From the NCBI GenBank assembly GCA_947626435.1, contig CANQSB010000003.1, positions 1 through 64,000 on the forward strand: DNA of 64,000 nt, written 5' to 3'. Source of the stretch: an uncultured Lachnospiraceae bacterium (lineage in GTDB: Bacteria; Bacillota; Clostridia; Lachnospirales; Lachnospiraceae). The position numbers and the translations under genes were made by a program. This document shows, piece by piece, positions 5,642-34,436 of the stretch; position 1 is the first letter of the stretch; each line of letters opens with the position of its first letter. Under the pieces are notes generated by a model. The model was not told the DNA's origin. It saw only the letters and a program-made list of their open reading frames with translations, and ran no database searches.

Positions 5642-6211
5642 TTAAATCGCATACCCGACTTCAAACGCCGCTTTGTTTATCTCAACAGTTTTGGGCGGCA
5701 CGGTGGCTTCTATGACTTCGAGCCACTGCGATTTGTCAAAGTCCATGCGCTTTGCGGCGACGCCGATTATGACGGTGTTGAAAACTTTGGTGTTTCCAAG
5801 CTTTCTTGCCTCGTCCATTGCGTCTACCGCTATTACATTGTGGTCTTTTTTCAGCGTTTCCAAAATATTTTCAGGATACTGCGCCGCGCCTGTCACGACT
5901 GTGATAGGATCGATGCGCTGGTCGTTTACTATTATCACTCCGTCTTTCTTTAAAAAGTGCGCATACCGCAGCGCCTCAAGACGCTCAAAAGCGATAAGCA
6001 CGTCTGCCTGTCCCTCCTCTACTATAGGTTCAGCCACAAAATCGCCATAACGTACAAAGGTGACGACACTGCCGCCGCGCTGTGCCATTCCGTGGACTTC
6101 CGAAAGCTTTACGTCGTAGCCTGTCTTGGTGGTTATGCCGCCCAGAATACGGCTTGTGAGGAGCGTGCCCTGACCGCCTACGCCGACAATCATTATATTT
6201 TTCGTATTCAT
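5642..6211 (-). CDS. iorB: Indolepyruvate ferredoxin oxidoreductase, beta subunit
   Basis: 189 residues, the usual length of the gamma-domain subunit of the 2-oxoacid:ferredoxin oxidoreductase family. With IorA it oxidatively decarboxylates aryl pyruvates (from Trp, Phe, Tyr) to aryl-acetyl-CoA with reduction of ferredoxin. The N-terminus IMIVGVGGQGTLLTSRILG is the characteristic glycine-rich start, followed by SEVHGMAQRGGSVVTFVR. It starts 12 bases after iorA ends, behind a GGGGGGATTACGA leader, so iorA-iorB are one operon on the - strand. Confidence 0.93.
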   Translation of the reverse strand: MNTKNIMIVGVGGQGTLLTSRILGGITTKTGYDVKLSEVHGMAQRGGSVVTFVRYGDFVAEPIVEEGQADVLIAFERLEALRYAHFLKKDGVIIVNDQRIDPITVVTGAAQYPENILETLKKDHNVIAVDAMDEARKLGNTKVFNTVIIGVAAKRMDFDKSQWLEVIEATVPPKTVEINKAAFEVGYAI

Positions 6212-6223
6212 TCGTAATCCCCC

Positions 6224-7960
6224 CTAATCAACTCTTTCAATGGCGTCGAATTTGCAGCGTTTCATGCATAAGCCGCAGCCATTGCACATGGTATCGTCAA
6301 TCTTTACAGTACCGTCTTCATTCTTGGTGAGCGCGGGACAGCCGGGAACAAGGCACATGCCGCATTTTTTGCATTTTTCAGGTACGGTTATGCACTTAGC
6401 CTTGGTCGCCTGTGATTTTAGAAGGGCGCAGGGTGCGCATACAATTATGACAGATGTGTCATCTCTTGCGGTTTCGCGTTTTACAAGTTCTTCAAGCTTA
6501 TCAACATCAAATGCGTCTACCTCATAAACGTGCTCCACGCCTATTGCCTTGCAGAGATGGTAGAGGCTGATTGCTTTTGTTTCCTTGCCGTTTAGCATTT
6601 TGCCAGTGGCGGCATGGTCCTGATGACCTGTCATGCCTGTGGTGGAATTGTCAAGGATAAGCACTGTGCCGCTTGACTGGTTGTATACCATATTCATAAG
6701 CGAGTTTACGCCTGTGTGCAGAAATGTAGAGTCGCCGATAAGCGCAACCCAGTTTTTGATATAGTCCTTGCCTTTTGCCTTTTCCATGCCATGCAGGGTG
6801 GAAATTGACGCGCCCATGCATACTGTGGTGTCGATCACGTCAAGCGGCGCGACTGCTCCGAGCGTGTAGCAGCCAATGTCTCCCGCTCCGTGGATCTTGA
6901 GCTTTTTAAGCACTGAGTAGGTGCTTCTGTGAGGGCAGCCCGGACATAGGATAGGCGGGCGTGCGGGAACTTTGGCGGGGGAGGCAATGTCAAGCTTTTC
7001 GCCAAGCACGCGCTCGCGGAGCATATTCGCGCTGTATTCGCCCTGCAGCGTGAACAGCTCTTTGCCAATGCACTTTATGCCCCATGATTTTACCTGTTCC
7101 TCGATTAGCGGTTCAAGCTCCTCGAAAATGTAGAGCGTTTCTACCTTTGAGGCAAATTCTTCTATCAGTCTGCGGGGCAGCGGGTGGATAAGACCGAGTT
7201 TAAGTACGCTTGCGTTCGGAAGCGCCTCGGCGACATATGTATATGGTATGCCGCTTGTGATTACGCCGATTTTTGTGTCTTTGTAGACTGCCTTGTTTAT
7301 TTCAAAGCTGCAGGCATCTTCCGCCATTTTTTTAAGTCGGTTTTCCACGTGGATATGGCGCGCCTTTGCCTGTGTGGGCATCATTACGTTTTTGGCGACA
7401 TTTCGCTCATAGGGCTTGTCGGGGATTTCCTCGCGCGGCTCTAAGGTGACGGGACCTTGTGAGTGGGCAAGGCGCGTCGTGGTGCGAATCATGACAGGAG
7501 TGTCATATTTTTCGCTGTATTCAAAGGCAAGCTTGGTAAAGTCCTTTGCCTCTTGAGAGTCTGACGGCTCCAGCACGGGAACCTGTGCCACGCGTGCGAC
7601 GCATCTTGAATCCTGCTCATTTTGTGATGAGTAAAGTCCCGGGTCGTCTGCGGCGACTATTACGAGACCGCCGTTTGCGCCGATATATGCCGCTGTGTAG
7701 AGCGGATCGCTTGCCACGTTTACGCCTACCATCTTCATGGAAGCCATGGCGCGCACTCCGCTGATGGACGCTCCGATTGCGACTTCCATTGCGACTTTTT
7801 CATTTGGCGCCCATTCGGCGTACACTTCGGGATATTTTACGATATTTTCGCTTATTTCTGTGCTGGGTGTGCCAGGATACGCGCTTGATACCTTGACGCC
7901 CGCCTCGTAAGCGCCGCGGGCAATCGCCTCGTTGCCCAGCATTATTTTCTTTTCGCTCAT
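6224..7960 (-). CDS. iorA: Indolepyruvate ferredoxin oxidoreductase, alpha subunit
   Basis: 578 residues, full length. The N-terminal pyrimidine-binding domain has AYPGTPSTEI. The central thiamine-diphosphate domain carries ILCPGCPHR, the GDIGCYTLG segment and the metal/TPP motif IGDSTFLHTGVNSL. The C-terminus is a two-[4Fe-4S] ferredoxin domain with CKKCGMCLVPGCP and CNGCGLCMKRC. The start ATG has a GAAAGGAA site about 9 bases upstream. An oxygen-sensitive enzyme of this kind indicates an anaerobic amino-acid fermenter. The aryl-CoA product could be cleaved for ATP by a CoA ligase; one acyl-CoA ligase lies at 19418 but is not linked. Confidence 0.95.
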   Translation of the reverse strand: MSEKKIMLGNEAIARGAYEAGVKVSSAYPGTPSTEISENIVKYPEVYAEWAPNEKVAMEVAIGASISGVRAMASMKMVGVNVASDPLYTAAYIGANGGLVIVAADDPGLYSSQNEQDSRCVARVAQVPVLEPSDSQEAKDFTKLAFEYSEKYDTPVMIRTTTRLAHSQGPVTLEPREEIPDKPYERNVAKNVMMPTQAKARHIHVENRLKKMAEDACSFEINKAVYKDTKIGVITSGIPYTYVAEALPNASVLKLGLIHPLPRRLIEEFASKVETLYIFEELEPLIEEQVKSWGIKCIGKELFTLQGEYSANMLRERVLGEKLDIASPAKVPARPPILCPGCPHRSTYSVLKKLKIHGAGDIGCYTLGAVAPLDVIDTTVCMGASISTLHGMEKAKGKDYIKNWVALIGDSTFLHTGVNSLMNMVYNQSSGTVLILDNSTTGMTGHQDHAATGKMLNGKETKAISLYHLCKAIGVEHVYEVDAFDVDKLEELVKRETARDDTSVIIVCAPCALLKSQATKAKCITVPEKCKKCGMCLVPGCPALTKNEDGTVKIDDTMCNGCGLCMKRCKFDAIERVD

Positions 7961-8067
7961 TTGAATATGTTCCTTTCTGAAATAGTGGAGTATTTTTTAT
8001 TGTATTTTTTGTGATGCTTATAGTTATATGATAGAGAAAAATGTCGGGGTAGTCAATCATAAAAATT

Positions 8068-9686: not shown

Positions 9687-10337
9687 TTGAAAAGGAAGTA
9701 TTGTACATTGCCTGAATCCATGAAGGATATGCAAATGTATGGATTTCATTGGATGGAATTTGTGGTTCAGATACCGTCGCCGCTGCATATCATCACTTCA
9801 TACAAAAGCAACGGACTGACAAATGCCTGTATGCAGTCATGGACTACATTTACAGGCGGCAAGAACGGTTTTTATGCGATTGTCTCCGCAGTCAGCAAAA
9901 ACGGTCATTTATATCAAACACTTCACGAAACGAAAGAAGCCGTCATCAACTTTATGTCCGCCGATATTTACGATAAGTGTATGGAAACCATACGGCATAA
10001 TAAGTTTGATGATGATGAGATAGCGGCAGCGAGTTTAACCGCCGTAAAAGCCGATATGGTAAATGCGCCAATGATAGAGGAATGTTTTATCAATCTGGAA
10101 TGTAAGTTCAACTGGGAAAAGGAAATCGCCGAGGGAGACGATTATGTTTTAATGTGCCTTGAAATCATAAATGTGCATATTGATGAGCGCCATCTTGACG
10201 AAAATGATTTGGGGCGGACGGGTAAAACGGGAATTTTATATAACATCCACCATCCTATTAACCCTGAACAGTTCAATGGCACAGCCCACGACTATTTGGG
10301 CGTTATAGAGAAAATACGGGATTATGCCGAGTATTGA
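9687..10337 (+). CDS. Flavin reductase-like (split-barrel FMN-binding) protein
   Basis: 216 residues with the flavin reductase/flavoredoxin split-barrel pattern: an early SPLHIITSYKSNGLTNAC segment for flavin binding, a NGHLYQTLHETKEAVINF core, and PMIEECFINLECKF in the second half. These proteins bind FMN and act in electron transfer or flavin reduction in anaerobes. The start is probably the TTG at 9687, with GGAGG about 11 bases upstream. A broken relative occurs at 44431. Confidence 0.8.
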   Translation: MKRKYCTLPESMKDMQMYGFHWMEFVVQIPSPLHIITSYKSNGLTNACMQSWTTFTGGKNGFYAIVSAVSKNGHLYQTLHETKEAVINFMSADIYDKCMETIRHNKFDDDEIAAASLTAVKADMVNAPMIEECFINLECKFNWEKEIAEGDDYVLMCLEIINVHIDERHLDENDLGRTGKTGILYNIHHPINPEQFNGTAHDYLGVIEKIRDYAEY

Positions 10338-10521: not shown

Positions 10522-10638
10522 AATTTAGTACCATACTAAATTTTACATCATAAGTTCAAATAAAAATTTATTCAAACCGCCATCTTAGATGGCTCACAGT
10601 GTGTGAAACAAGAGAAGTCTGCGAAAGCGGGCTTTTTT
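10522..10638 (+). ncRNA. tracrRNA of the type II-A CRISPR system
   Basis: The sequence is complementary to the CRISPR repeat in the order expected. AGTACCATAC at 10527-10536 pairs with the repeat's 3' half. TTTTACATCAT at 10541-10551 pairs with ATGATGTAAAA. AAG at 10552-10554 forms the bulge known from other II-A duplexes, and TTCAAAT at 10555-10561 pairs with the repeat's 5' end. A nexus-like hairpin GCCATC-TTA-GATGGC lies at 10579-10593, then a small CACA/TGTG hairpin, then a terminator: GTCTGC-GAAA-GCGGGC at 10617-10632 followed by six T. Length is about 117 nt. It sits upstream of cas9 on the same strand with its own promoter. It guides RNase III processing of pre-crRNA and is part of the Cas9 guide. 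Confidence 0.92.
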
Positions 10639-10683
10639 GTTTTGTATCACCAAGATACATTATAAATATATTTGGTGAAATGG

Positions 10684-10756: not shown

Positions 10757-13700
10757 ATGCCAAAAGATTATTTTTTTGGATTGGATTTAGGCACTGGCTC
10801 GCTTGGCTGGGCAGTCACAGGTGAGGACTATGAGATTTTGCGCGGACACGGTAAGGCGCTTTGGGGCGTGAGATTATTTGAGAGCGCTAACACGGCTGAG
10901 GAGAGAAGAACATTCCGCACGTCAAGGCGCAGGCTTGACAGGCGAAATTGGAGAATAGACATTTTGCAGGAGATATTTTGTGATGAGATAAACAAGGTTG
11001 ATGACGGTTTTTATCTGCGGATGAAGGAAAGCCGATATACGCCAGAGGATAAGCGGGATAAGGACAACATCCGCCCTGCGCTCCCATATGCATTATTTGT
11101 GGATGCGGACTACACGGACAAGGATTATCATAGGCAGTTTCCGACTATTTATCATTTAAGGAAATGGCTTATGACGACAGACCAGACGCCTGATATAAGG
11201 CTGGTTTATCTGGCGCTGCACCATATAATGAAGCATAGGGGGCATTTTCTGTTTTCGGGAGATATAGATAATATCAAGGAATTTAAAGGAACATTTGAAC
11301 AGTTTATAAAGAGCCTTGCTGATGAAGAACTGGATTTCAACATAGAAATAGCTGATGGGCAGATTAATGAAGCTGAAAATATAATGAAAAATAAAAGTCT
11401 TGCAAAATCAGCCAAGGAGAGTGCGCTAAAAAAGCTGTTCGATGTAAAGAGCGCGTGCGAGAAGGCTGTAATAAAGCTGATTGTGGGCGGCAAAGTAAAT
11501 CTCAGCGATATTTTTTCCAACAGTGAGCTTGACAATTGCGAAAGACCTAAAATCTCATTTTCAGAAAGCGGTTATGACGACTATGTGAGCATAGTGGAGT
11601 CGGAGCTTGGCGAGCAGTTTGAGATTATAGCGCGTGCAAAGGCTGTCTATAACTGGGCAGTGCTTGTTGACATTTTGGGCGATTATCAGTCCATTTCTGA
11701 GGCAAAGACCGCTGTATATGAAAAGCATAAGACGGATTTGATGTATTTAAAAAAGCTGGTGCGGGATAATTTATCTAAAGAGGAATACAGGAATATTTTT
11801 GTTAAAACTGATGAGAAAACAGCCAATTATTGCGCATATATCGGAATGACAAAAAAGAACGGCAAAAAGCAGGACATGGAGGGAAAACTCTGCAGCAGGG
11901 AGGATTTTTACGGTTTCCTTAAAAAGTCAGTGATAGGCGCTATCGGTGATGATGAAAAGACAAAATATCTTCAGGACGAAATACAGAAGGAGACATTTCT
12001 GCCAAAGCAAGTCACAAAGGACAATGGGGTTATTCCGTACCAGGCGCATTTGTATGAGCTGCGGCAGATAATAAAAAATTTGAAGGACAGAATACCTCTT
12101 TTAAAGGAAAATGAGGATAAAATAATAAGCACTTTTACATTCAGAATACCGTACTATGTCGGACCGCTTAACGGCATAAAGAAGGGAGACTCTGCGACAA
12201 ACTGGGTAAAGCGCATCAGTACGGAAAAGATTTATCCGTGGAATTTTTCAAGTGTGGTAGATACAGAGGCAAGCGCAGAGCAGTTTATAAGGCGAATGAC
12301 CAGCAAATGTACATATCTGGCTGATAAAGACGTGCTGCCTAAAAATTCATTGCTTTACAGTAAATTTACCGTTTTAAATGAGTTAAACAATCTTTGCCTT
12401 GACGGAGAGCCTATTGACGTGGAGCTGAAACAGCGAATATATGAAGACCTGTTTATGCGCTATAGAAAGGTAACTCAGAAAAAATTAAGGGATTATCTGG
12501 TGAGGGAAGGCATAAAGGGCAAAACAGTTGACATTACGGGCATAGATGGCGATTTTAAGGGAACGCTTACCGCATACCATGATTTCAAGGAGAAACTTAC
12601 GGATTGCACGCTTAGCCAGGAAGACAAAGAGGAAATAATACTAAATATAACTTTGTTTGGCGAGGATAAAAAGCTGCTTGGCAAACGGCTTGAAAAGCTA
12701 TATCCTCAGCTTACAGAGAAACAGAGGAAGGGCTTATGTTCGCTTTCGTATTCGGGCTGGGGGCGTCTGTCAAAGGAGTTTTTGGAGGAAATCACCGCGC
12801 CCGATTTGGAAACAGGGGAAGCAAGAAGCATTATTCAGATGATGTGGTACACAAATGATAATCTGATGCAGATTTTGAGCGATAAATATTTATTTGCACA
12901 GGCAGTTGAAGACGCTAACAAAAAGGACGAGATTAAAGATATATCCTACAGTTTGGTGGAGCAGCTGTATGTGTCGCCAGCTGTAAAACGCCAGATATGG
13001 CAGACGCTTCAGATAGAAAAGGAAATCTGCAATGTGATGAAAAATCCGCCTAAACGCATATTTGTGGAGATGGCGCGGGAAAAGCAGGAGAGTAAGCGCA
13101 CAGAGTCACGCAAGAGACAGCTTATTGAGCTTTATAAGAAATGCAAAGATGAGGAAAGGGAATGGATTGACGAGCTTGACAAGACAGAGGAGCATCAGTT
13201 GAGGAGCGATAAGCTTTATCTGTATTATACGCAAAAGGGGCGCTGCATGTATTCGGGCGAGCAGATACAGCTTGAAGACTTGTGGGACAATAATAAATAT
13301 GACATAGACCATATTTATCCGCAGTCAAAAGTGATGGACGACAGCCTTGATAACCGAGTGCTTGTGAAAAAGGTTTACAACGCCGAAAAAACTGACGGCT
13401 ATCCCATACGCGCTGAGATAAGAAATAAAATGCAGCCATATTGGAAATCGCTGCTTATTGGAGGCTTTATTTCAAAGAAAAAATATGAGCGCCTTACCAG
13501 AAGCACAGGGTTTGATGATAATGAGCTTGCGGGATTTATAGAGCGCCAGCTAGTTGAAACAAGGCAGGGAACAAAAGCTGTCGCGTCTGTACTAAAACAG
13601 ATTTTTCCTGACACGGAGATAGTGTATGTAAAGGCAAAGCTGGCTGCGCAGTTCAGGCAGGATTTTGACTTGGTTAAGGTGCGTGAAATGAATGATCTGC

Positions 13701-14446
13701 ACCATGCGAAGGACGCATATTTGAATGTTGTGGTAGGTAATGTTTATCATACAAAGTTTACGAGCAGCGCGATAAGGTTTATAAAGGAAAGCAGCGGCAG
13801 AAGTTATAATCTAAAGAAACTGTTTACATCTAATGATATTGTGCAGAATAATAAGGTAGCATGGAAAGCTGGCAGCAGTGGCACGATATGTACGGTAAAA
13901 AAGGTGATGAGGAAAAATAATATTCTTGTCACCAGGCGCAGCTATGAAGTTAAGGGCGGGCTTTTTGACCAGCAGCTCATGAAGAAGGGCAAAGGTCAAG
14001 TGCCTGTAAAGAGCAGTGATGAAAGGCTGCTTGACATTGAAAAATACGGTGGGTACAACAAGGCGGCAGGAACTTATTTTATGCTGGCAGAGTCTGAGGA
14101 TAAAAAGGGTAATAAGATAAGGACTATTGAATATGTACCTTTGTATATGCATACTCAGATAGAGAGAAGCAAGGAAGATGCGATAAGATATTTGGAAAAT
14201 GACAGAGGACTGAAAAATCCGCGTATTTTGCTGAGCAAAATAAAAATAGATACGCTGTTTAAGGTTGATGGATTTTATATGTGGCTGTCGGGTAGAACGG
14301 GAAATCAGCTTATATTTAAAGGCGGTGTACAGCTGGTTTTAAATGAAGATAATGTTAGGTGTCTTAAAAAAGTGGGAAAATTTGTGCAACGCCAGAAAGA
14401 GAACAGAAATATAAAAGTAGTAGCACATGATGAAATATCGGAGTAG
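10757..14446 (+). CDS. cas9: Cas9 (type II-A), nuclease portion, ended by an in-frame amber codon
   Basis: RNA-guided DNA endonuclease. The ATG at 10757 is the start: GGAGG at 10747-10751 lies 5 bases before it, and an upstream TTG would overlap that site. Visible: RuvC-I FGLDLGTGSLGWAV with Asp10; arginine-rich bridge helix about residues 50-67; RuvC-II IFVEMAREK with Glu771; HNH DIDHIYPQS with His852 and Asn866; RuvC-III HHAKDAYLNV with His983 and Asp986. All catalytic residues are retained. After codon 1229 the frame meets TAG (14444-14446), inside the C-terminal PAM-interacting region. The same frame then continues open into the next feature, so a full-length product would be about 1338 residues, normal for II-A. 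As written, this product lacks the end that contacts the PAM. Confidence 0.93.
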   Translation: MPKDYFFGLDLGTGSLGWAVTGEDYEILRGHGKALWGVRLFESANTAEERRTFRTSRRRLDRRNWRIDILQEIFCDEINKVDDGFYLRMKESRYTPEDKRDKDNIRPALPYALFVDADYTDKDYHRQFPTIYHLRKWLMTTDQTPDIRLVYLALHHIMKHRGHFLFSGDIDNIKEFKGTFEQFIKSLADEELDFNIEIADGQINEAENIMKNKSLAKSAKESALKKLFDVKSACEKAVIKLIVGGKVNLSDIFSNSELDNCERPKISFSESGYDDYVSIVESELGEQFEIIARAKAVYNWAVLVDILGDYQSISEAKTAVYEKHKTDLMYLKKLVRDNLSKEEYRNIFVKTDEKTANYCAYIGMTKKNGKKQDMEGKLCSREDFYGFLKKSVIGAIGDDEKTKYLQDEIQKETFLPKQVTKDNGVIPYQAHLYELRQIIKNLKDRIPLLKENEDKIISTFTFRIPYYVGPLNGIKKGDSATNWVKRISTEKIYPWNFSSVVDTEASAEQFIRRMTSKCTYLADKDVLPKNSLLYSKFTVLNELNNLCLDGEPIDVELKQRIYEDLFMRYRKVTQKKLRDYLVREGIKGKTVDITGIDGDFKGTLTAYHDFKEKLTDCTLSQEDKEEIILNITLFGEDKKLLGKRLEKLYPQLTEKQRKGLCSLSYSGWGRLSKEFLEEITAPDLETGEARSIIQMMWYTNDNLMQILSDKYLFAQAVEDANKKDEIKDISYSLVEQLYVSPAVKRQIWQTLQIEKEICNVMKNPPKRIFVEMAREKQESKRTESRKRQLIELYKKCKDEEREWIDELDKTEEHQLRSDKLYLYYTQKGRCMYSGEQIQLEDLWDNNKYDIDHIYPQSKVMDDSLDNRVLVKKVYNAEKTDGYPIRAEIRNKMQPYWKSLLIGGFISKKKYERLTRSTGFDDNELAGFIERQLVETRQGTKAVASVLKQIFPDTEIVYVKAKLAAQFRQDFDLVKVREMNDLHHAKDAYLNVVVGNVYHTKFTSSAIRFIKESSGRSYNLKKLFTSNDIVQNNKVAWKAGSSGTICTVKKVMRKNNILVTRRSYEVKGGLFDQQLMKKGKGQVPVKSSDERLLDIEKYGGYNKAAGTYFMLAESEDKKGNKIRTIEYVPLYMHTQIERSKEDAIRYLENDRGLKNPRILLSKIKIDTLFKVDGFYMWLSGRTGNQLIFKGGVQLVLNEDNVRCLKKVGKFVQRQKENRNIKVVAHDEISE

Positions 14447-14452
14447 GAATTA

Positions 14453-14773
14453 TTGAATTTATATGATGAATTTTTAAATAAAATTAAAAATACAATATAT
14501 AATTCAAAGCTAGGCGCACAGGAGAAAACGTTGAGTGAAAAAAGAAACATTTTTATAGATTTAAGTGTAGAAGATAAATGTGTGGTTTTATCTGAAATAC
14601 TTCATATGTTTCAGTGTCAAAGCAGTTCCGCTAATTTAAAGTTAATTGATGGTCCAGCAAGTGCAGGGATAATAAAAATTGGCAATAATATAAGCAATAT
14701 AGGTCAAATTTCAATCATAAACCAATCTCCGACAGGAATATATGAACAGGAGATTTACTTGAAATCACTATGA
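14453..14773 (+). CDS. cas9: C-terminal piece of Cas9 (PAM-interacting domain end), after the amber codon
   Basis: About 106 residues in the same frame as cas9, directly after its amber codon. The end INQSPTGIYEQEIYLKSL matches the family's C-terminus (compare IHQSITGLYETRIDLSQL in S. pyogenes Cas9), and the preceding helix EKRNIFIDLSVEDKC with SEILHMFQ fits the II-A C-terminal domain. It could start at the TTG at 14453: GGAG at 14440-14443 lies 9 bases upstream, and TTG starts appear elsewhere in this window (csn2, the UGT, the flavin reductase, the subtilase). It ends by an ATGA overlap with cas1, so downstream coupling is preserved. It may be a separately made half of a split Cas9, or the untranslated tail of a mutated gene. 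Confidence 0.85.
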   Translation: MNLYDEFLNKIKNTIYNSKLGAQEKTLSEKRNIFIDLSVEDKCVVLSEILHMFQCQSSSANLKLIDGPASAGIIKIGNNISNIGQISIINQSPTGIYEQEIYLKSL

Positions 14774-15642
14774 GCTGGCGAATTGTTGTTATCTCCAAAC
14801 GGGCGAAGCTTGAATATAACTTAGGATATCTTGTAGTACGCAACGAGGAGATAACAAAAATTCATTTAAGCGAAATATCCACATTAATAGTAGAGTCCAC
14901 ATCAGTTTCGCTTACGACGAGCCTGCTTTCGGAGCTTGTAAAGAAGAAAATCAAAGTAATTTTCTGTGACGAAAAACGCAATCCTGTTTCAGAGCTTATT
15001 GGTTATTACGGTAGCCATGACACAAGCAATAAAGTACGGAAACAGATTCAATGGAGCAATGAAATCAAAGAGGCTGTATGGACACAGATTGTTGCGGAAA
15101 AGATACGAAAACAGAAAGAACTTTTGGAATATTTGGATAAGGAGGAAGCGAAGCTTTTAGCATCATATATAGAAGAAATTGACATAAATGATACATCAAA
15201 CCGCGAAGGTCATGCGGCAAAAGTATATTTCAATGCTCTATTTGGAATGAAATTTACGCGGAGCAGTGACAGTGTTATAAATGCGGCGTTGGATTATGGA
15301 TACTCTATAATATTATCAGCATTTTCAAGAGAAATCACGGCTAATGGTTATATAACACAGTTAGGACTTTTCCACGACAATATGTTTAACCAGTTCAATT
15401 TAGCGTCAGATTTGATGGAGCCATACAGAATACTTATTGACAGGGAAGTATATAATACGAAGTTTGAAAAGTTTGAACATGAGGAAAAAATGCAGATAGT
15501 CAATGTGTTGAATCAAGAGGTCAAAATCGATGATAAGAGGCAGTATGTAAATAATGCTGTAAAGATATATTGCAAAAGCGTATTTGATGCTTTAGATGAA
15601 AATGACATTTCAAAGCTTCGTTTTTACAGCTTTGAGCTATAG
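14770..15642 (+). CDS. cas1: Cas1 integrase (type II)
   Basis: 290 residues, full length for type II Cas1, the catalytic subunit of the Cas1-Cas2 spacer integrase. The beta N-terminal domain is followed by the helical catalytic domain with metal-binding residues Glu146 (NREGHAAKVYF), His202 (LGLFHDN) and Glu217 (SDLMEPYR). The ATG overlaps the stop of the cas9 tail by ATGA. The following cas2 begins 4 bases after the stop. Nothing suggests damage, so adaptation was probably active recently. Confidence 0.95.
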   Translation: MSWRIVVISKRAKLEYNLGYLVVRNEEITKIHLSEISTLIVESTSVSLTTSLLSELVKKKIKVIFCDEKRNPVSELIGYYGSHDTSNKVRKQIQWSNEIKEAVWTQIVAEKIRKQKELLEYLDKEEAKLLASYIEEIDINDTSNREGHAAKVYFNALFGMKFTRSSDSVINAALDYGYSIILSAFSREITANGYITQLGLFHDNMFNQFNLASDLMEPYRILIDREVYNTKFEKFEHEEKMQIVNVLNQEVKIDDKRQYVNNAVKIYCKSVFDALDENDISKLRFYSFEL

Positions 15643-15646
15643 GTTT

Positions 15647-15952
15647 ATGAGAGTATTAGTGTTTTTTGATTTGCCTGTCGTTACTGGAGAGCAAAGGAAA
15701 GAATATACGCGATTTAGAAAATTTCTTCTAAGAAGCGGATTTATGATGCTTCAGGAGTCTGTCTACTGTAAGCTGGCACTGAATGGCACGGCTGTACAGG
15801 GAATTGTTGACAGTGTGCATAAAAATAAGCCCAAGGAAGGACTTGTGCAGCTGCTGACAATAACTGAAAAACAATATTCTAAAATGGACATAATTGTGGG
15901 AACAGTTAAAAGCGAAATCCTTGACAGTGATGAGAGGCTGGTGATACTTTGA
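15647..15952 (+). CDS. cas2: Cas2
   Basis: 101 residues; the ferredoxin-fold structural partner of Cas1. The N-terminus MRVLVFFDLPVVTGEQRK has the conserved Asp8 after the first strand, and RSGFMMLQESVYCKLA follows, as in other II-A Cas2 proteins. The ATG at 15647 is preferred over a longer in-frame start that would overlap cas1. The stop overlaps the TTG start of csn2. Confidence 0.95.
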   Translation: MRVLVFFDLPVVTGEQRKEYTRFRKFLLRSGFMMLQESVYCKLALNGTAVQGIVDSVHKNKPKEGLVQLLTITEKQYSKMDIIVGTVKSEILDSDERLVIL

Positions 15953-16620
15953 AGCTTGTGCATAAGGATTTGGAAAGGCAGATTGTTTTTAAAGAGCCGT
16001 TTGGATGCTGTGAATGGATAATAGAGTCGCCGCAGCTTTTTTCAAAATATCTGTATGAATTATATGCTCAGACGGAAGGCAGGGAAGGCTGCTTTGTATT
16101 ATCAAATGATGATAAAACGCTTGAAATATCAAAATGTTCAGAGCTTATACTGCAGCCATTATCCGTCAATATAAATGATAAGAAAATACTAAATAAGCTT
16201 TATGGGGAATTGGAAAAGCTTGCTTTCAATGAAGACATGTTTTTGCTGACGCAGGAAATGCGCGGAAAACTTCAAGAATATTTTTTCAATCTGGAACAAA
16301 GGTGTACATATCCATTGTCTATAGAAGATGATATAGATATCATGTCCATATTTAAGGCTGTTGGAATAAAATGCGAGAAATATTCAGATGATATTTTTGA
16401 AAATCTGATAGAATACATCAAAATAGTATCGCATCTGCTTAATAAAAAGCTGTTTATTTTTGCGAACATAAGAAGCTACATTTGTGATGAACAGTTGAAG
16501 CAGCTATTAAAAGAAACAGCTTATACGGAAGTTAATATACTTCTTATCGAAAACAAAAAAAGAAGTTGCCTGTATGATGTAGCAGAGTATATAATAGATT
16601 GTGATAATTGCGAAATATGA
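15949..16620 (+). CDS. csn2: Csn2, type II-A adaptation protein
   Basis: 223 residues. Csn2 forms a tetrameric ring that holds DNA ends during spacer acquisition and defines subtype II-A. The start MKLVHKDLERQIVFKEPF and the mid-region ELILQPLSVNINDKKILNKL are family-like; near the C-terminus HLLNKKLFIFANIRSYI and TEVNILLIENKK match the conserved end. Start is the TTG at 15949 overlapping the cas2 stop. It ends 53 bases before the first repeat. Confidence 0.9.
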   Translation: MKLVHKDLERQIVFKEPFGCCEWIIESPQLFSKYLYELYAQTEGREGCFVLSNDDKTLEISKCSELILQPLSVNINDKKILNKLYGELEKLAFNEDMFLLTQEMRGKLQEYFFNLEQRCTYPLSIEDDIDIMSIFKAVGIKCEKYSDDIFENLIEYIKIVSHLLNKKLFIFANIRSYICDEQLKQLLKETAYTEVNILLIENKKRSCLYDVAEYIIDCDNCEI

Positions 16621-16673: not shown

Positions 16674-18091
16674 GTTTGAGAATGATGTAAAAATGTATGG
16701 TACTCAAACAAAAACTCTGGCATAGACATTAAGACAATGGTTTGAGAATGATGTAAAAATGTATGGTACTCAAACGCCTTTAAAGTAATGCCTGTATATA
16801 TAACTGTTTGAGAATGATGTAAAAATGTATGGTACTCAAACTACAGATGTTTACTTGACTAACCACCGCCCGTTTGAGAATGATGTAAAAATGTATGGTA
16901 CTCAAACTACCTTCTCTTGTAGCAAGATTGATAGCATGTTTGAGAATGATGTAAAAATGTATGGTACTCAAACTTAACTCTGATGTGAAACTTCCATAAC
17001 AAGTTTGAGAATGATGTAAAAATGTATGGTACTCAAACGGAGCGTTTAGAGGGAACACAAGACACATTGTTTGAGAATGATGTAAAAATGTATGGTACTC
17101 AAACAAAAATGCCCTTTATCGCCTTGAAAGCCTTGTTTGAGAATGATGTAAAAATGTATGGTACTCAAACTATTTTAAAGTCGCTTGTATTTTGAGTATT
17201 GTTTGAGAATGATGTAAAAATGTATGGTACTCAAACGTTTTTAATGTATTGCGGTGTAGTCATTATGTTTGAGAATGATGTAAAAATGTATGGTACTCAA
17301 ACTTGTGCATCTCCACATAAAAACAGATTGCAGTTTGAGAATGATGTAAAAATGTATGGTACTCAAACATATTATACGCTTGACGGGGAGCTAATAAGTT
17401 TGAGAATGATGTAAAAATGTATGGTACTCAAACGTTTCCGACGGCGGCAAATTTGCAATAACGGTTTGAGAATGATGTAAAAATGTATGGTACTCAAACT
17501 ATGATATTTTATATCGCGGATAATATTTCGTTTGAGAATGATGTAAAAATGTATGGTACTCAAACGCGCCCTCTGTCGGTATGTCAACCGATTCGGTTTG
17601 CGAATGATGTAAAAATGTATGGTACTCAAACCGTGGGGCGGTGGTAAAATATACTTAGGGGGTTTGAGAATGATGTAAAAATGTATGGTACTCAAACAAA
17701 GAATATGGTTGTCATAATCTCTATTATGTTTGAGAATGATGTAAAAATGTATGGTACTCAAACTGGTCGGCATACTGAGTTATTACGGCAAGTGTTTGAG
17801 AATGATGTAAAAATGTATGGTACTCAAACTTTTACGGACAATCATACTTTCAGGCGTGTGTTTGAGAATGATGTAAAAATGTATGGTACTCAAACTGCCC
17901 AACAAAATCATCAAAGGAACTAGGGTTTGCGAATGATGTAAAAATGTATGGTACTCAAACTGCCCAACAAAATCATCAAAGGAACTAGGGTTTGCGAATG
18001 ATGTAAAAATGTATGGTACTCAAACCGTTATTATTACTACTAAGTTTGGCTCTATGTTTGAGAATGATGTAAAAATGTATGGTACTCAAAC
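16674..18091 (+). CRISPR. CRISPR array: 22 repeats of 36 bp, 21 spacers of 29-30 bp
   Basis: Repeats begin at 16674, 16740, 16806, 16872, 16938, 17003, 17069, 17135, 17201, 17267, 17333, 17398, 17464, 17530, 17596, 17662, 17728, 17794, 17860, 17925, 17990 and 18056. Each starts GTTTGAG and ends ACTCAAAC, so the ends are inverted repeats, with a central ATGATGTAAAAATGTATGG. Three repeats (17596, 17925, 17990) read GTTTGCG instead. Spacers 19 (17896-17924) and 20 (17961-17989) are identical, a duplication of one spacer-repeat unit. The last repeat is not degenerate. The spacers could not be compared with phage or plasmid sequences here. Confidence 0.98.
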
Positions 18092-29887: not shown

Positions 29888-30964
29888 ATGTTTGACAAAT
29901 TGGAGGATTTGCTCGCTCGCTTTGAGGAGATTATGAACGAGCTAAATGAGCCGGGCGTGGCTGAAAATCAAAAGCGTTTCAAACAGCTTATGAAAGAGCA
30001 GAGCGATTTGACGCCTATAGTCGAGGCGTATAGGGAATATAAAAAATGCAGCGAGACGGTTGAAGACTCAATTGCCATGCTGGAAACGGAAAGCGACGAG
30101 GAAATGCGGGAGATGCTCAAGGATGAGCTTAATGACGCCAAAAAGCGCATAGAGGAGCTTGAAAACGAACTGAAAATCCTGCTGCTGCCCAAAGACCCCA
30201 ACGACGACAAGAACGTTATCGTGGAGATACGCGCGGGTGCGGGCGGCGATGAGGCGGCGCTGTTTGCGGCTGAAATATACCGTATGTATGTGCATTATGC
30301 TGAGAGCAGGCGCTGGAAGGTCGAGACGATAGAGGCGGAGGAAATCGGCATAGGCGGCATGAAAAGCGTCACGTTTATGATAACGGGACAGGGCGCGTAT
30401 TCGATAATGAAGTATGAATCCGGCGTACACCGCGTACAGCGCGTGCCGGAGACAGAATCGGGCGGACGCATACACACTTCGACAATTACGGTAGCTGTGA
30501 TGCCGGAGGCGGAGGAAGTTGACGTGCAGATAGACGAAAAAGACATCCGCATTGACGTGATGAGAGCGTCGGGAAACGGCGGACAGTGCGTAAATACTAC
30601 GGATTCGGCGGTGCGCCTTACGCATTATCCTACAGGAATAGTAGTTTACAGCCAGACGGAAAAATCGCAGCTCCAAAACAAGGCAAAGGCATTTGCGCTG
30701 CTGCGTGCAAAACTCTATGACATAGAGTGCCAGAAGGCTCACGACGCGGAGGCGGAGGCGCGCCGCAGTCAGATAGGTTCAGGCGACAGGAGCGAGAAGA
30801 TAAGGACATACAATTTCCCACAGGGGCGCGTGACGGACCACCGCATAAACCTTACGCTTTACAAGCTTGACAAAGTAATGGACGGCGATATTCAGGAGAT
30901 TATAGACGCGTGCATAGCGGCAGACCAGGCGGCAAAGCTCAGCCGCATGCAGAATGCGGGATAA
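29888..30964 (+). CDS. prfA: Peptide chain release factor 1
   Basis: 358 residues. RF1 reads UAA and UAG. Visible: the codon-recognition region [18 protein letters not shown] (PET in place of the usual P-x-T), and the GGQ loop in [20 protein letters not shown]. The length and motifs show a normal RF1. Because RF1 decodes UAG, it bears on the amber codon inside cas9: this organism should read it as a stop, and several genes here (for example the one ending at 21052) use TAG normally. Confidence 0.96.
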
Positions 30965-31151
30965 AATAAGCCTTACAAAGCGGATTTTGGCATATGCCGG
31001 AGTCCGTTTTTTTGTTTGTCATGCGGACAATAAAAATTGCACAAATCATTCAATAAAATATTTGGAAAATTATATAAAACGTGCTATAATATTTTTAATA
31101 ATTTTTTTATCCCAGAACAAGCTATCACGAAAAGAAGGTGTGGTCTTTAAT

Positions 31152-32516
31152 ATGCAGGAAAAAGAGAAAAATGCAATCAGGCTAATCAGGCAGGAAATGA
31201 GCGAAAAGGATTTTGAATTGTATATGTATTCGCTCAAAAAGATGGCGGAAAACAATATTGACCAAAACCTTAGCTTTATGACGGAGCTTTATAATATTCG
31301 GGCGTTTCAGTTTAAGGCTGCGGAGGAGATGCTTGAGAATCCGGAGCTCAAATTTGCCATGATTGTTTTGGATTTTGCCAATTTCAGCACGATAAACGAA
31401 TTTTGTGGCAGAAAGACGGGCGACGATTTGCTAAAGCATACGGCAAACAGCATGCGCACGCTTCAGAGGGAGCATGTGGTGCTTTCGCATTTCCGCGCGG
31501 ATACGTTTGGAATATTTACGCCGTTTAATGACAAGGAGGAGCTGATAGACATTGCGGTGAAGCTTGATGAAATGATAGCCGAGTTCAAGATACCGTACAA
31601 GGTGCTGCCTGCGTTTGGCATCTGCATAGCGGACAGCCCTACTATGTCGATAAGCATTATGCGTGATTATGCGGTAATGGCGCTTGATTCCATAAAGGGC
31701 AAGTTTTATGCAAAATATGCATTTTTTGATGAGAAAATGCGCAGCCGGATGATTATGAACAAAATGATTGAGAATGATATCGTTGACGCTCTGGCAAACG
31801 AGCACATACTTCTCTATGTGCAGCCCAAGGTAAACATGAGGACGGGAGAGGTAGATGGCGGGGAGGCGCTTGTGCGCTGGGCGCATCCTGAGCGCGGTAT
31901 TGTTATGCCCTGCCATTTTATACCTGTGCTTGAGCGCAACGGGCTTATCATAGATGTGGATATATGCGTATGGCGGCAGGTATTTCGGCTGCTCGGCAGG
32001 AGGCTTGCGGAGGGCAAGAAGGTAGTGCCCATATCAATAAATATTTCCAGACAGCATGTGTTTGACGACAGCTTCAAGGATAAGCTTATAGATATGTCAA
32101 AGGAATACAACGTGCCGCCGGAGCTTGTGCCTCTTGAGCTTACGGAGAGCGGCTTCCTCGAAAATCAGGGAATGATGTACGAGCGCATGCACTATTTAAA
32201 GGAATATGGCTTTAAGCTTTCGATGGACGATTTCGGCTCCGGATATTCAAACATCACAATGCTCAAAAATGAGGCTATGGACGAGATAAAGATTGACAAG
32301 GGCTTTGTGGACGACATAGCTACGCCCAAGGGACGGCGCATTTTGAAGCATGTTATAGAAATGATTAAGGACCTTGGGCTGAACATCATTGTAGAGGGCG
32401 TGGAGGAAGCGCGGCAGCGGGACTTTCTGCTTGAATGCGGCTGTACCAATGCGCAGGGCTTTTATTATTATAAGCCAATGCCGACAGATGACTTCGAGGC
32501 GCTTTTGGACAAATAG
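31152..32516 (+). CDS. EAL-domain c-di-GMP phosphodiesterase with degenerate GGDEF
   Basis: 454 residues, soluble. An N-terminal helical part leads to a degenerate GGDEF domain in which the active loop reads RADTFGIF (no GGDEF), so it should not make c-di-GMP. The EAL domain keeps its catalytic set: EALVRW, SINISRQ (Asn), LELTESGF (Glu), SMDDFGSGYS (Asp-Asp), EIKIDKGFV (Lys), VEGVEE (Glu) and QGFYYYKP (Gln). It probably hydrolyses c-di-GMP. The ATG at 31152 is about 13 bases after AAGAAGG; upstream in-frame codons belong to the 3' part of prfA and are not used. It is followed 18 bases on by a membrane EAL protein. Confidence 0.9.
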   Translation: MQEKEKNAIRLIRQEMSEKDFELYMYSLKKMAENNIDQNLSFMTELYNIRAFQFKAAEEMLENPELKFAMIVLDFANFSTINEFCGRKTGDDLLKHTANSMRTLQREHVVLSHFRADTFGIFTPFNDKEELIDIAVKLDEMIAEFKIPYKVLPAFGICIADSPTMSISIMRDYAVMALDSIKGKFYAKYAFFDEKMRSRMIMNKMIENDIVDALANEHILLYVQPKVNMRTGEVDGGEALVRWAHPERGIVMPCHFIPVLERNGLIIDVDICVWRQVFRLLGRRLAEGKKVVPISINISRQHVFDDSFKDKLIDMSKEYNVPPELVPLELTESGFLENQGMMYERMHYLKEYGFKLSMDDFGSGYSNITMLKNEAMDEIKIDKGFVDDIATPKGRRILKHVIEMIKDLGLNIIVEGVEEARQRDFLLECGCTNAQGFYYYKPMPTDDFEALLDK

Positions 32517-32534
32517 GAAAGGACGCATAAAGGA

Positions 32535-34436
32535 ATGAACATACAAATGCAGGTCGGCGGTTTGCTGATTTTATTTTTAGTGCTTTTTTATTATAAAAGG
32601 CATGGCACTGTGGGGCTGTATGCTGAAAAGCTTTTTAGGCGGGCGTTATATGTCACCATAGTGTGCCTTATATTGGACATAACGTCAATAGTGCTTATCA
32701 CATATATGGACAGGCTTCCGAGGTGGCTTGTCGAGTTTGAGTGCAAGGCATATCTGATTTCGCTGGTGTGGAACGGATATATGGCGCTTTCTTACGCGAG
32801 CGCGGATACGCATTATATGCTGCGGATGAATCAGCTTGTGCAGCGTTTTTGTGCCGCGGTCGTCATTGCAAGCATGGTGATATTCCTGCTTCCGATAAAT
32901 ATTTATTGCGAGGGAAATGTCGTATATACTTACGGTCCCGCTTGCATGGCGACATACGGCACCGCGCTTGTGACGATAATTTTCACCATATATACAGTTA
33001 TGACGCAGCGCAAAGAGATAAACCCGAAGCGTGCGAAAGCCATAATGACATGGATGGTAATATGGATAGTGCTTTCTGTCACGCAGTTTATTTTCAGCCA
33101 GTTTCTGCTTGTGGGATTTGCGAGCGTGCTGGGTATGCTTATATTGTTTTTTGAACTTGAAAATCCTGAGGCGAACATTGACAGGAGGACGGGTTTCTTC
33201 AATAATTATATCTTTGTCGATTATTTAAAGCAGAAGTACAAGGAAAAAGCGTTTATGTGCGGTATGCTCGTGTCGTTTGAGGACATACACGCCAGGGACA
33301 TTCCGTCTGAGCAGCTTGACGAGGCGTTTGCCGAGATAGCTGATTTTTTTCGTCAGGTGCCGGACGCGACGCTTTTTAGGACTGAGGACGGGGAATTTAC
33401 GCTTGTGTTCGACAATCATGATGCGCTTGAAAATGCGTACCGTATGATTTCGGAGCGTTTCAAAAAGGGGTGGCTTGAAAAGCGTTTCAGCAGCGTGCCG
33501 CTTTACCTGGAACCGCGTTACATTATGATGCCTGCGGCAAGCGTGGCAAAAAGCGCGGACGAGCTGATAGGTTTTTTGAAGTATTTCAGGGCTCATGTTT
33601 CGAAAACGCCTGACAACGGGGTGATGGTCATTGACGAGGCGATGATGGCAAGAAAGCGCGCGAGGGAAGAAATGATGGGCACGCTTATAAGCGCCATGAA
33701 TGACGGCAGGGTGGAGGTATTTTTCCAGCCTATTTATTCGACTAAGGAAAAGCGCTTTGTGTCTGCCGAGGCGTTGGTGAGGCTGAGACGCTCTGACGGC
33801 ACGATTATTCCGCCGGGGATGTTTATACCGATTGCGGAGGAGACGGGGGTTGTGGCGCAACTTGGGGAGGTTGTGTTTGACAGGACCTGCCGCTTTATAA
33901 AGGAGCATGATGTCACGCAGTATGGCATTAGATATATCGAGGTGAATTTGTCTGTGGTTCAGTGTGAGGATACGGAGATGGCGAGGGGATATATTGATGT
34001 GATGGAAAAGTACGGCGTTAATCCGTCGCTTATTAATTTGGAGATTACGGAGTCTGCTTCGACAATGATGAAAAAGACGCTGCTTAAGAATATGCAGGAG
34101 CTTATTGATTATGGGGTGAGGTTTTCACTGGATGATTTTGGAAATGGGCAGTCGAATTTGAATTATATTGTGGATATGCCTGTAAAAATCGTGAAATTTG
34201 ACCGGGATATGACGCAGGCGTACTTTAAGAATGAGAAGGCGCGGTTTGTGCTGCAGGCGGCTATGAATATGGTGCATGATATGCATTTGGAGGTCGTGGC
34301 TGAGGGCGTGGAGACGCAGGAGCAGTTTGAGGTGTTGGAGAAGATGGGGGTTGATTATATTCAGGGGTATTATTTTTCGAAGCCTGTGGAGGGGAGATTG
34401 TTTGTTGAGTTTTTGAAGACGCATAATGAGGGGTGA
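32535..34436 (+). CDS. Membrane-bound degenerate GGDEF-EAL protein
   Basis: 633 residues. About six membrane segments occupy residues 1-210, then a degenerate GGDEF domain with loop RTEDGEFTLVF, then an EAL domain with EALVRLRR, EVNLSVVQ (Asn), LEITESAS, SLDDFGNGQS, VKFDRD (Lys retained), VAEGVETQ and QGYYFSKP. It is likely a sensor-type phosphodiesterase. It follows the soluble EAL protein after 18 bases, so both are co-transcribed; two EAL enzymes in tandem suggest local lowering of c-di-GMP. Toward the 3' end, codon usage shifts to GGG, TTG and GTG, a trend that carries on into aroA. Confidence 0.88.
   Translation: MNIQMQVGGLLILFLVLFYYKRHGTVGLYAEKLFRRALYVTIVCLILDITSIVLITYMDRLPRWLVEFECKAYLISLVWNGYMALSYASADTHYMLRMNQLVQRFCAAVVIASMVIFLLPINIYCEGNVVYTYGPACMATYGTALVTIIFTIYTVMTQRKEINPKRAKAIMTWMVIWIVLSVTQFIFSQFLLVGFASVLGMLILFFELENPEANIDRRTGFFNNYIFVDYLKQKYKEKAFMCGMLVSFEDIHARDIPSEQLDEAFAEIADFFRQVPDATLFRTEDGEFTLVFDNHDALENAYRMISERFKKGWLEKRFSSVPLYLEPRYIMMPAASVAKSADELIGFLKYFRAHVSKTPDNGVMVIDEAMMARKRAREEMMGTLISAMNDGRVEVFFQPIYSTKEKRFVSAEALVRLRRSDGTIIPPGMFIPIAEETGVVAQLGEVVFDRTCRFIKEHDVTQYGIRYIEVNLSVVQCEDTEMARGYIDVMEKYGVNPSLINLEITESASTMMKKTLLKNMQELIDYGVRFSLDDFGNGQSNLNYIVDMPVKIVKFDRDMTQAYFKNEKARFVLQAAMNMVHDMHLEVVAEGVETQEQFEVLEKMGVDYIQGYYFSKPVEGRLFVEFLKTHNEG

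What the first reader, a model, noticed from the sequence alone, without database searches (positions are those of the whole stretch)
14440..14773. cas9 interrupted by one in-frame amber codon; the C-terminal piece is positioned to be translated separately (possible natural split Cas9)
Seen: the frame of cas9 meets TAG at 14444-14446 (codon 1230) and continues open in the same frame to 14773, ending in the canonical II-A Cas9 C-terminus and overlapping cas1 by ATGA. All RuvC and HNH residues are upstream of the amber; the PAM-contacting end is downstream. GGAG at 14440-14443 precedes a TTG at 14453 by 9 bases, and other genes here use TTG. Known: Cas9 needs its C-terminal domain to read the PAM. 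Inference: the two pieces may reassemble, occasional readthrough may give low-level full-length Cas9, or the first piece may act as a PAM-blind binder or regulator. The other cas genes, tracrRNA and array show no decay, which fits either a very recent mutation or a retained two-part effector.
Basis: partly seen in the sequence, partly recalled or inferred. Interest (0 to 1): 0.88.

Follow-up and report, generated by a model that had tools for sequence, protein, structure and literature searches.

The report
Cas9 gene cut by stop codon
A bacterium's Cas9 gene has picked up a single stop codon that removes the end of the protein that reads the DNA landing mark; this looks like a recent loss of function of a kind already seen in other bacteria, rather than a new two-part enzyme.

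Summary
A type II-A locus (tracrRNA, cas9, cas1, cas2, csn2, 22 repeats) has an in-frame TAG at 14444-14446, codon 1230 of cas9. It cuts the PAM-interacting domain in two; the remaining 108 codons are open and undecayed. The nearest relative (98% protein identity, same genus) is uninterrupted. Of 54 related loci matched on both sides, none has a stop at the junction. In family, order and class samples, none of 72 other genomes with a Cas9_PI match has a stop inside it (8 matches are partial). TAG is an ordinary stop here; no amber-suppressor tRNA was found. The GGAG and TTG offered as a start site also occur in the uninterrupted relative, so they are inherited codons. Broken cas9 genes are common: 10 of 74 related loci. 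Published Mycoplasma gallisepticum isolates carry Cas9 lacking 79 or 120 C-terminal residues. A natural two-frame cas9 is reported from Ligilactobacillus salivarius, with weak cell-free activity. The genome also has a type I-C system. Best reading: a recent nonsense mutation giving a truncated, probably PAM-blind Cas9. A reassembling two-part Cas9 is possible, since SpCas9 split inside the same domain can reassemble, but nothing here favours it.

The parts
10525..10652 (+). tracrRNA region: anti-repeat at 10524-10560 followed by hairpins and a U-run
   Evidence: Local alignment of the reverse-complemented repeat; RNA fold z-score -3.83; exact ends inferred
10757..14446 (+). cas9 first piece, 1229 aa then TAG: bridge helix, REC, RuvC, HNH and the first part of the PAM-interacting domain
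   Evidence: TIGR01865 E 8.4e-275
14444..14446 (+). in-frame amber codon (codon 1230)
   Evidence: absent from L001
14440..14455 (+).
   Evidence: same letters in L001; GGAG not at that place in 15 other relatives
14447..14773 (+). open remainder of cas9, 108 codons and TGA: last part of the PAM-interacting domain
   Evidence: (PF16595 167-265, E 1.4e-29)
14770..15642 (+). cas1, type II
   Evidence: TIGR03639 E 2.4e-93
15647..15952 (+). cas2
   Evidence: TIGR01573 E 1.2e-19
15949..16620 (+). csn2, type II-A, TTG start
   Evidence: TIGR01866 E 6.8e-56
16674..18091 (+). CRISPR array: 22 repeats of 36 nt, 21 spacers (20 distinct)

Best explanation
A recent single nonsense mutation in an otherwise intact type II-A cas9. 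Shown: the stop; its absence from the nearest relative and from the other relatives examined; the undecayed remainder; a second CRISPR-Cas system (type I-C, gene set complete) elsewhere in the same genome. Inferred: the product is a 1229-residue Cas9 with RuvC, HNH and guide-binding parts but without the last 108 residues of the PAM-interacting domain. It can probably still hold crRNA:tracrRNA but cannot read a PAM, so DNA targeting by this locus is lost or nearly so. If the truncated protein persists, spacer choice by Cas1-Cas2-Csn2 would lose its PAM filter.
For: L001, in the same genus (as L076 in genome G034), is 98% identical over 1229 aa, 99% over the last 108, and has no stop. Both pieces matched in 54 of 74 loci; 51 of the 54 are in frame with no stop across the junction and as far as the second match reaches. 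None of 72 other PI-bearing genomes sampled has a stop inside its PI match, 8 of these matches being partial. The remainder differs from L001 by 5 synonymous and 1 non-synonymous codons, so decay has not begun. That one change puts Y where 31 of 48 relatives have D and none has Y. TAG is a normal stop. The start-like letters are inherited. Broken cas9 is common: 10 of 74 loci. The same kind of lesion is published in M. gallisepticum (PMC11893278, passages). A type I-C system makes loss tolerable.
Against: No reads were available, so an assembly error or minority allele is not excluded. Only one very close relative (about 95% DNA identity) bounds the age. The remainder is clean enough to fit a retained second piece as well. 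Engineered SpCas9 split inside the same domain can reassemble, so loss of function is a prediction, not a result.
Confidence: 0.72

Rival explanations
1. Natural two-part Cas9: ribosomes that end at TAG restart at TTG 14453, and the about 12 kDa piece docks onto the truncated Cas9 and restores PAM reading.
For: GGAG and TTG are suitably spaced. The remainder is undecayed. SpCas9 pieces split inside the PI domain keep activity without inteins, reduced in the cleavage test (PMC5063958). A natural two-frame cas9 of L. salivarius showed some activity in a cell-free test (PMC11288051).
Against: No relative seen shares the split. The start-like letters are also in uninterrupted L001, and GGAG is not at that place in 15 other relatives. 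Promoter-like sites around the junction are not clearly above chance (6 on both strands against 3.4, sd 1.7, in shuffles). In the L. salivarius work, the two genes on separate plasmids gave no apparent repression.
Confidence: 0.06
2. Assembly error or a minority allele in the sequenced material; the organism mostly has an uninterrupted cas9.
For: One-codon difference; no reads available here; the nearest relative is uninterrupted.
Against: A scan for same-frame open stretches of at least 90 codons on both sides of one stop gave 15 pairs in the 64 kb. Besides cas9, two were translated and are ordinary neighbouring genes, each with its own ATG. The other 12, not translated, lie on the minus strand opposite plus-strand ORFs. 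Genome estimated 95.77% complete, 0.27% contaminated.
Confidence: 0.14
3. Amber readthrough or suppression gives low-level full-length Cas9.
For: The frame downstream is open and conserved.
Against: TAG closes ordinary genes in the window. A tRNA-shaped pattern with a CUA anticodon gave only two hits in the genome, and both lie in tRNA genes with other anticodons, Arg and Glu; a suppressor with an unusual T arm could be missed.
Confidence: 0.04
4. Cas9 was inactivated under selection to escape a self-targeting spacer.
For: Spacer 14 (17566-17595) matches the cell's own htpG at 26 of 30 positions. Self-targeting is a published companion of split cas genes (PMC11288051).
Against: No spacer has a full match in the held assembly. 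Two of spacer 14's four mismatches lie 4 and 5 bases from the PAM side, and it fits sites in two other genus members better (3 mismatches).
Confidence: 0.04

Closest known systems
Mycoplasma gallisepticum Cas9 truncated forms V1 and V3 (PMC11893278, passages seen)
   Same: A point mutation to a stop removes 79 C-terminal residues (V1), or a frameshift removes the last 120 within the PI domain (V3); read there as loss of CRISPR function
   Different: Different organism; isolates over years available there, none here
Ligilactobacillus salivarius NCK 1355 type II-A split cas9 (PMC11288051, sections 7 and 9 and passages seen)
   Same: Natural type II-A cas9 in two coding sequences with tracrRNA, cas1, cas2 and csn2 kept
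   Different: Split by a frame change within the first of its two cas9 genes, not by one nonsense codon; its type II-A array has a self-targeting spacer; tested in a cell-free system with weak activity
Engineered SpCas9/dCas9 split at residue 1,153 inside the PI domain (PMC5063958, passages seen; one sentence of the paper prints 1,135)
   Same: Break falls inside the PAM-interacting domain; pieces work without inteins, with reduced cleavage activity, and as dCas9 almost like the intact protein
   Different: Engineered, expressed in human cells; the break here is later in the domain
Cas9 of PDB 9jwk/9jwn, 1372 aa
   Same: Closest solved structure by sequence for both pieces (E 5.2e-265 and 1.8e-9)
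   Different: One uninterrupted chain; the break here falls between its residues 1241 and 1264 by alignment

Membership tests
Type II-A CRISPR-Cas locus | cas9, cas1, cas2 and csn2 together | tested here: met
Type II-A CRISPR-Cas locus | tracrRNA with anti-repeat matching the array repeat | tested here: met
Functional Cas9 effector | one chain with a complete PAM-interacting domain | tested here: not met
   PF16595 divided between two stretches of one frame by TAG
Natural two-part Cas9 | split kept in related genomes | tested here: not met
   stop at this codon seen only in this genome; other strains of the same species were not available
Natural two-part Cas9 | own translation start for the second piece | tested here: inconclusive
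   GGAG and TTG present but also in the uninterrupted gene of L001
Natural two-part Cas9 | both pieces made and assembled into an active nuclease | not testable with these tools
   Needs proteomics and interference assays
Nonsense-truncated (inactivated) Cas9 | premature stop against uninterrupted close relatives, no shared split | tested here: met
Nonsense-truncated (inactivated) Cas9 | loss of targeting activity | not testable with these tools
   Needs an interference assay
Recoded amber codon | TAG read as an amino acid elsewhere, suppressor tRNA present | tested here: not met
   TAG ends window genes; no CUA tRNA by pattern

The most novel reading that the evidence does not exclude
The amber codon has made a working two-chain Cas9: the 1229-residue chain holds the guide and the nuclease, and a separately started C-terminal piece of about 106 residues supplies PAM reading, so that targeting depends on the dose of a small partner. 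L014 carries its own nonsense codon further down the same domain, followed directly by an ATG, which would make this a repeated route.
Probability: 0.05. Interest if true: 0.6.

Novelty: new member of a known kind. Interest (0 to 1): 0.2.

Why it matters
As a loss of function it adds one more natural case in which a cell keeps tracrRNA, acquisition genes and array while Cas9 loses PAM reading, and it sits beside a type I-C system. It is a natural substrate for asking what an acquisition complex does with a Cas9 that cannot read a PAM. If the two pieces did reassemble, it would be a natural dose-controlled Cas9.

Tried and rejected
Amber recoding: two other long TAG-separated frame pairs in the window (5642-7996 minus, 30918-34436 plus) looked at first like further in-frame ambers. 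Translation shows ordinary neighbours, each with its own ATG.

Suppressor tRNA: both pattern hits lie in normal tRNA genes.

Self-targeting as the cause: no full match in the own genome. BLAST to E 10 gave 26 matches, one being the array itself; I compared 5 of the other 25 places with every spacer over full length, and one, in htpG, reached 26 of 30.

Protospacers: no match in plasmids, one weak match in phages (E 0.4), none in viral contigs for the last 23-24 bases, matched exactly, of 3 spacers out of 20 distinct. So no PAM could be derived, and whether the newest spacers lack one was not tested.

Second copies of this junction in viral contigs: none.

Enrichment of lesions in the C-terminal part: 3 of 10 broken loci against 8% of the length, P 0.041, the window itself left out. 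Post hoc and small, so not used as evidence.

Relaxed selection on the first piece: 10 amino-acid changes on the window side, 7 on the L001 side, 7 unclear; no clear difference.

A structure model of the PI domain was asked for five times and never ran because the machine was busy.

Full report
What is there. The window holds a type II-A CRISPR-Cas locus on the plus strand. A tracrRNA region lies upstream (anti-repeat 10524-10560; fold z-score -3.83). It is followed by cas9, cas1, cas2 and csn2 and an array of 22 repeats with 21 spacers, 20 of them distinct. The cas9 frame meets TAG at 14444-14446, codon 1230 from the ATG at 10757, and is open again to TGA 14771-14773, overlapping the cas1 ATG. 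Pfam's Cas9_PI model is divided: positions 1-153 on the first piece, 167-265 on the second.

Is the stop shared? The genome-contig scan gave 74 loci. The closest, L001, is 98% identical over the first piece and 99% over the last 108 residues, and has a sense codon. By its contig position it is the same place as the hit in G034, a member of the window's genus; 3 of 38 genus genomes, the own one included, have this Cas9. Both pieces matched in 54 of the 74 loci. Of these, 51 run in one frame with no stop from 20 codons before the end of the first match to the end of the second. In a few the second match covers only part of the remainder, for instance L008 residues 1-53 and L049 residues 5-41. 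L014 has its own nonsense codon about 50 codons further on. L066 and L069 are out of frame; L066 carries an insertion with a transposase-like reading frame, a name from my reading and not from a search. The 20 other loci gave no usable match to both pieces in that search. Independently, Cas9_PI was sought in samples of 397 family, 392 order and 391 class genomes, the own genome in each. Counting each genome once, 72 others have a match (31, 22 and 19 new per call; 2 are below the family's cut-off), and none has a stop inside it; 8 of the 72 matches cover only part of the domain. The 14 control genomes of that search gave no match.

Is the remainder decaying? Against L001 the last 108 codons differ by 5 synonymous and 1 non-synonymous codons, the first 1229 by 71 and 24. 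Few non-synonymous changes mean that most of the divergence happened under constraint: P of at most 1 of 6 at a neutral 0.75 is 0.005. That is rough, since part of the divergence belongs to L001's own, constrained lineage. The one change, at residue 104 of the second piece, puts Y where 31 of 48 relatives have D and none has Y. This fits a young stop and cannot by itself tell loss from retention. On the first piece, 10 changes fall on the window side, 7 on the L001 side and 7 are unclear.

Could the second piece be translated? GGAG and TTG are spaced like a start site, but the same letters stand in L001, where the frame runs on. GGAG is missing from the 12 bases before the remainder in the 15 other relatives printed, though 3 of these have another Shine-Dalgarno-like tetramer there. 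They are coding letters that happen to suit. Restart after TAG remains possible. Promoter-like sites over 14000-14900 number 6 on both strands, against 3.4 (sd 1.7) in shuffles. Readthrough is not favoured: TAG ends ordinary neighbouring genes in the window, and a genome-wide tRNA-shaped pattern for a CUA anticodon hit only tRNA-Arg and tRNA-Glu genes. The pattern assumes a standard T arm.

How ordinary is a broken cas9? Of the 74 loci, 10 have a lesion that is not a contig end: L005, L014, L045, L049, L051, L066, L067, L069, L072 and L074. Some may be assembly errors. Seven more that merely run off their contigs (L008, L019, L024, L050, L054, L065, L070) were not counted as broken. In the PI survey I fetched 10 of the 12 other genomes whose open frame around the match was under 1,200 aa. 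Five lie at contig ends (G675, G638, G684, G885, G764). G521 has a frame change, G696 an internal stop, G1014 lacks a match to the first part, G988 shows only the last part of the domain as a short frame of 107 aa, and G268 matches only distantly. In print, M. gallisepticum isolates lost Cas9 function repeatedly by point mutations and frameshifts, including forms lacking 79 or 120 C-terminal residues (PMC11893278, passages). L. salivarius NCK 1355 has a two-frame cas9 with no clear crRNA maturation in the cell and some activity in a cell-free test; its two genes on separate plasmids showed no apparent repression (PMC11288051, sections 7 and 9 and passages). In the listings (titles and starts of abstracts) of my searches for natural split Cas9 and for broken cas9 genes I recognised only the L. 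salivarius paper as such a case; the M. gallisepticum paper came from a search on spacer acquisition.

Why might loss be tolerated? The genome has a second system: cas3, cas5c, cas8c, cas7, cas4, cas1c, cas2 and an array of 8 repeats, type I-C; that it works was not tested. Self-targeting was tested as a driver. One spacer matches the cell's own htpG at 26 of 30 positions, with two mismatches 4 and 5 bases from the PAM side, and fits sites in two other genus members slightly better (only the own-genome site was checked as htpG). This is not a working self-target by the usual seed rule (recalled, not tested).

Likely consequence. Residues that read the PAM lie near the end of the PI domain in SpCas9 (recalled: R1333 and R1335; the SpCas9 PI domain was not matched by the sequence profile here, so this was not mapped). 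Without the last 108 residues the protein should keep guide binding and both nuclease domains but lose PAM reading. [quoted passage not shown] Against a firm verdict of loss stands the finding that SpCas9 split at residue 1,153, inside the PI domain, works without inteins, with reduced cleavage activity (PMC5063958, passages).

Verdict. Observation confirmed. Most likely a recent loss-of-function mutation of a known kind; the two-part reading is possible but has no positive support in related genomes.

Noticed in passing
L014:9865-9870: A related Lachnospiraceae Cas9 (49% identical) has its own nonsense codon (9865-9867) inside the PAM-interacting domain, about 50 codons after the window's position, followed directly by an in-frame ATG, with the rest of the frame intact.
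   Followed up: partly
17566-17595: Spacer 14 nearly matches htpG, a chromosomal chaperone gene: 26 of 30 in the own genome (G000:C26), and 27 of 30 at sites in two other genus members.
   Followed up: partly
17860-17989: Two neighbouring spacers are identical, and three repeats (17596, 17925, 17990) carry the same one-base variant, which suggests repeat-spacer duplication.
   Followed up: no
L153:3960-12673 (G000:C39): A type I-C CRISPR-Cas gene set with an 8-repeat array in the same genome.
   Followed up: yes
L066:3125-5580: In another relative a stretch of about 2.4 kb with a transposase-like frame (name from reading, not searched) interrupts cas9 inside the same domain.
   Followed up: partly
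L147:1016-1210 (G988:C261): A short open frame of 107 aa carries only the last part of a Cas9 PAM-interacting domain; no match to the first piece of the window's Cas9 was found in the 6 kb taken.
   Followed up: no
16674-18091 and L001:11918-12546: By reading the two lists, the window's array shares no spacer with the 10 repeats readable in L001, although the loci are about 95% identical in DNA.
   Followed up: no
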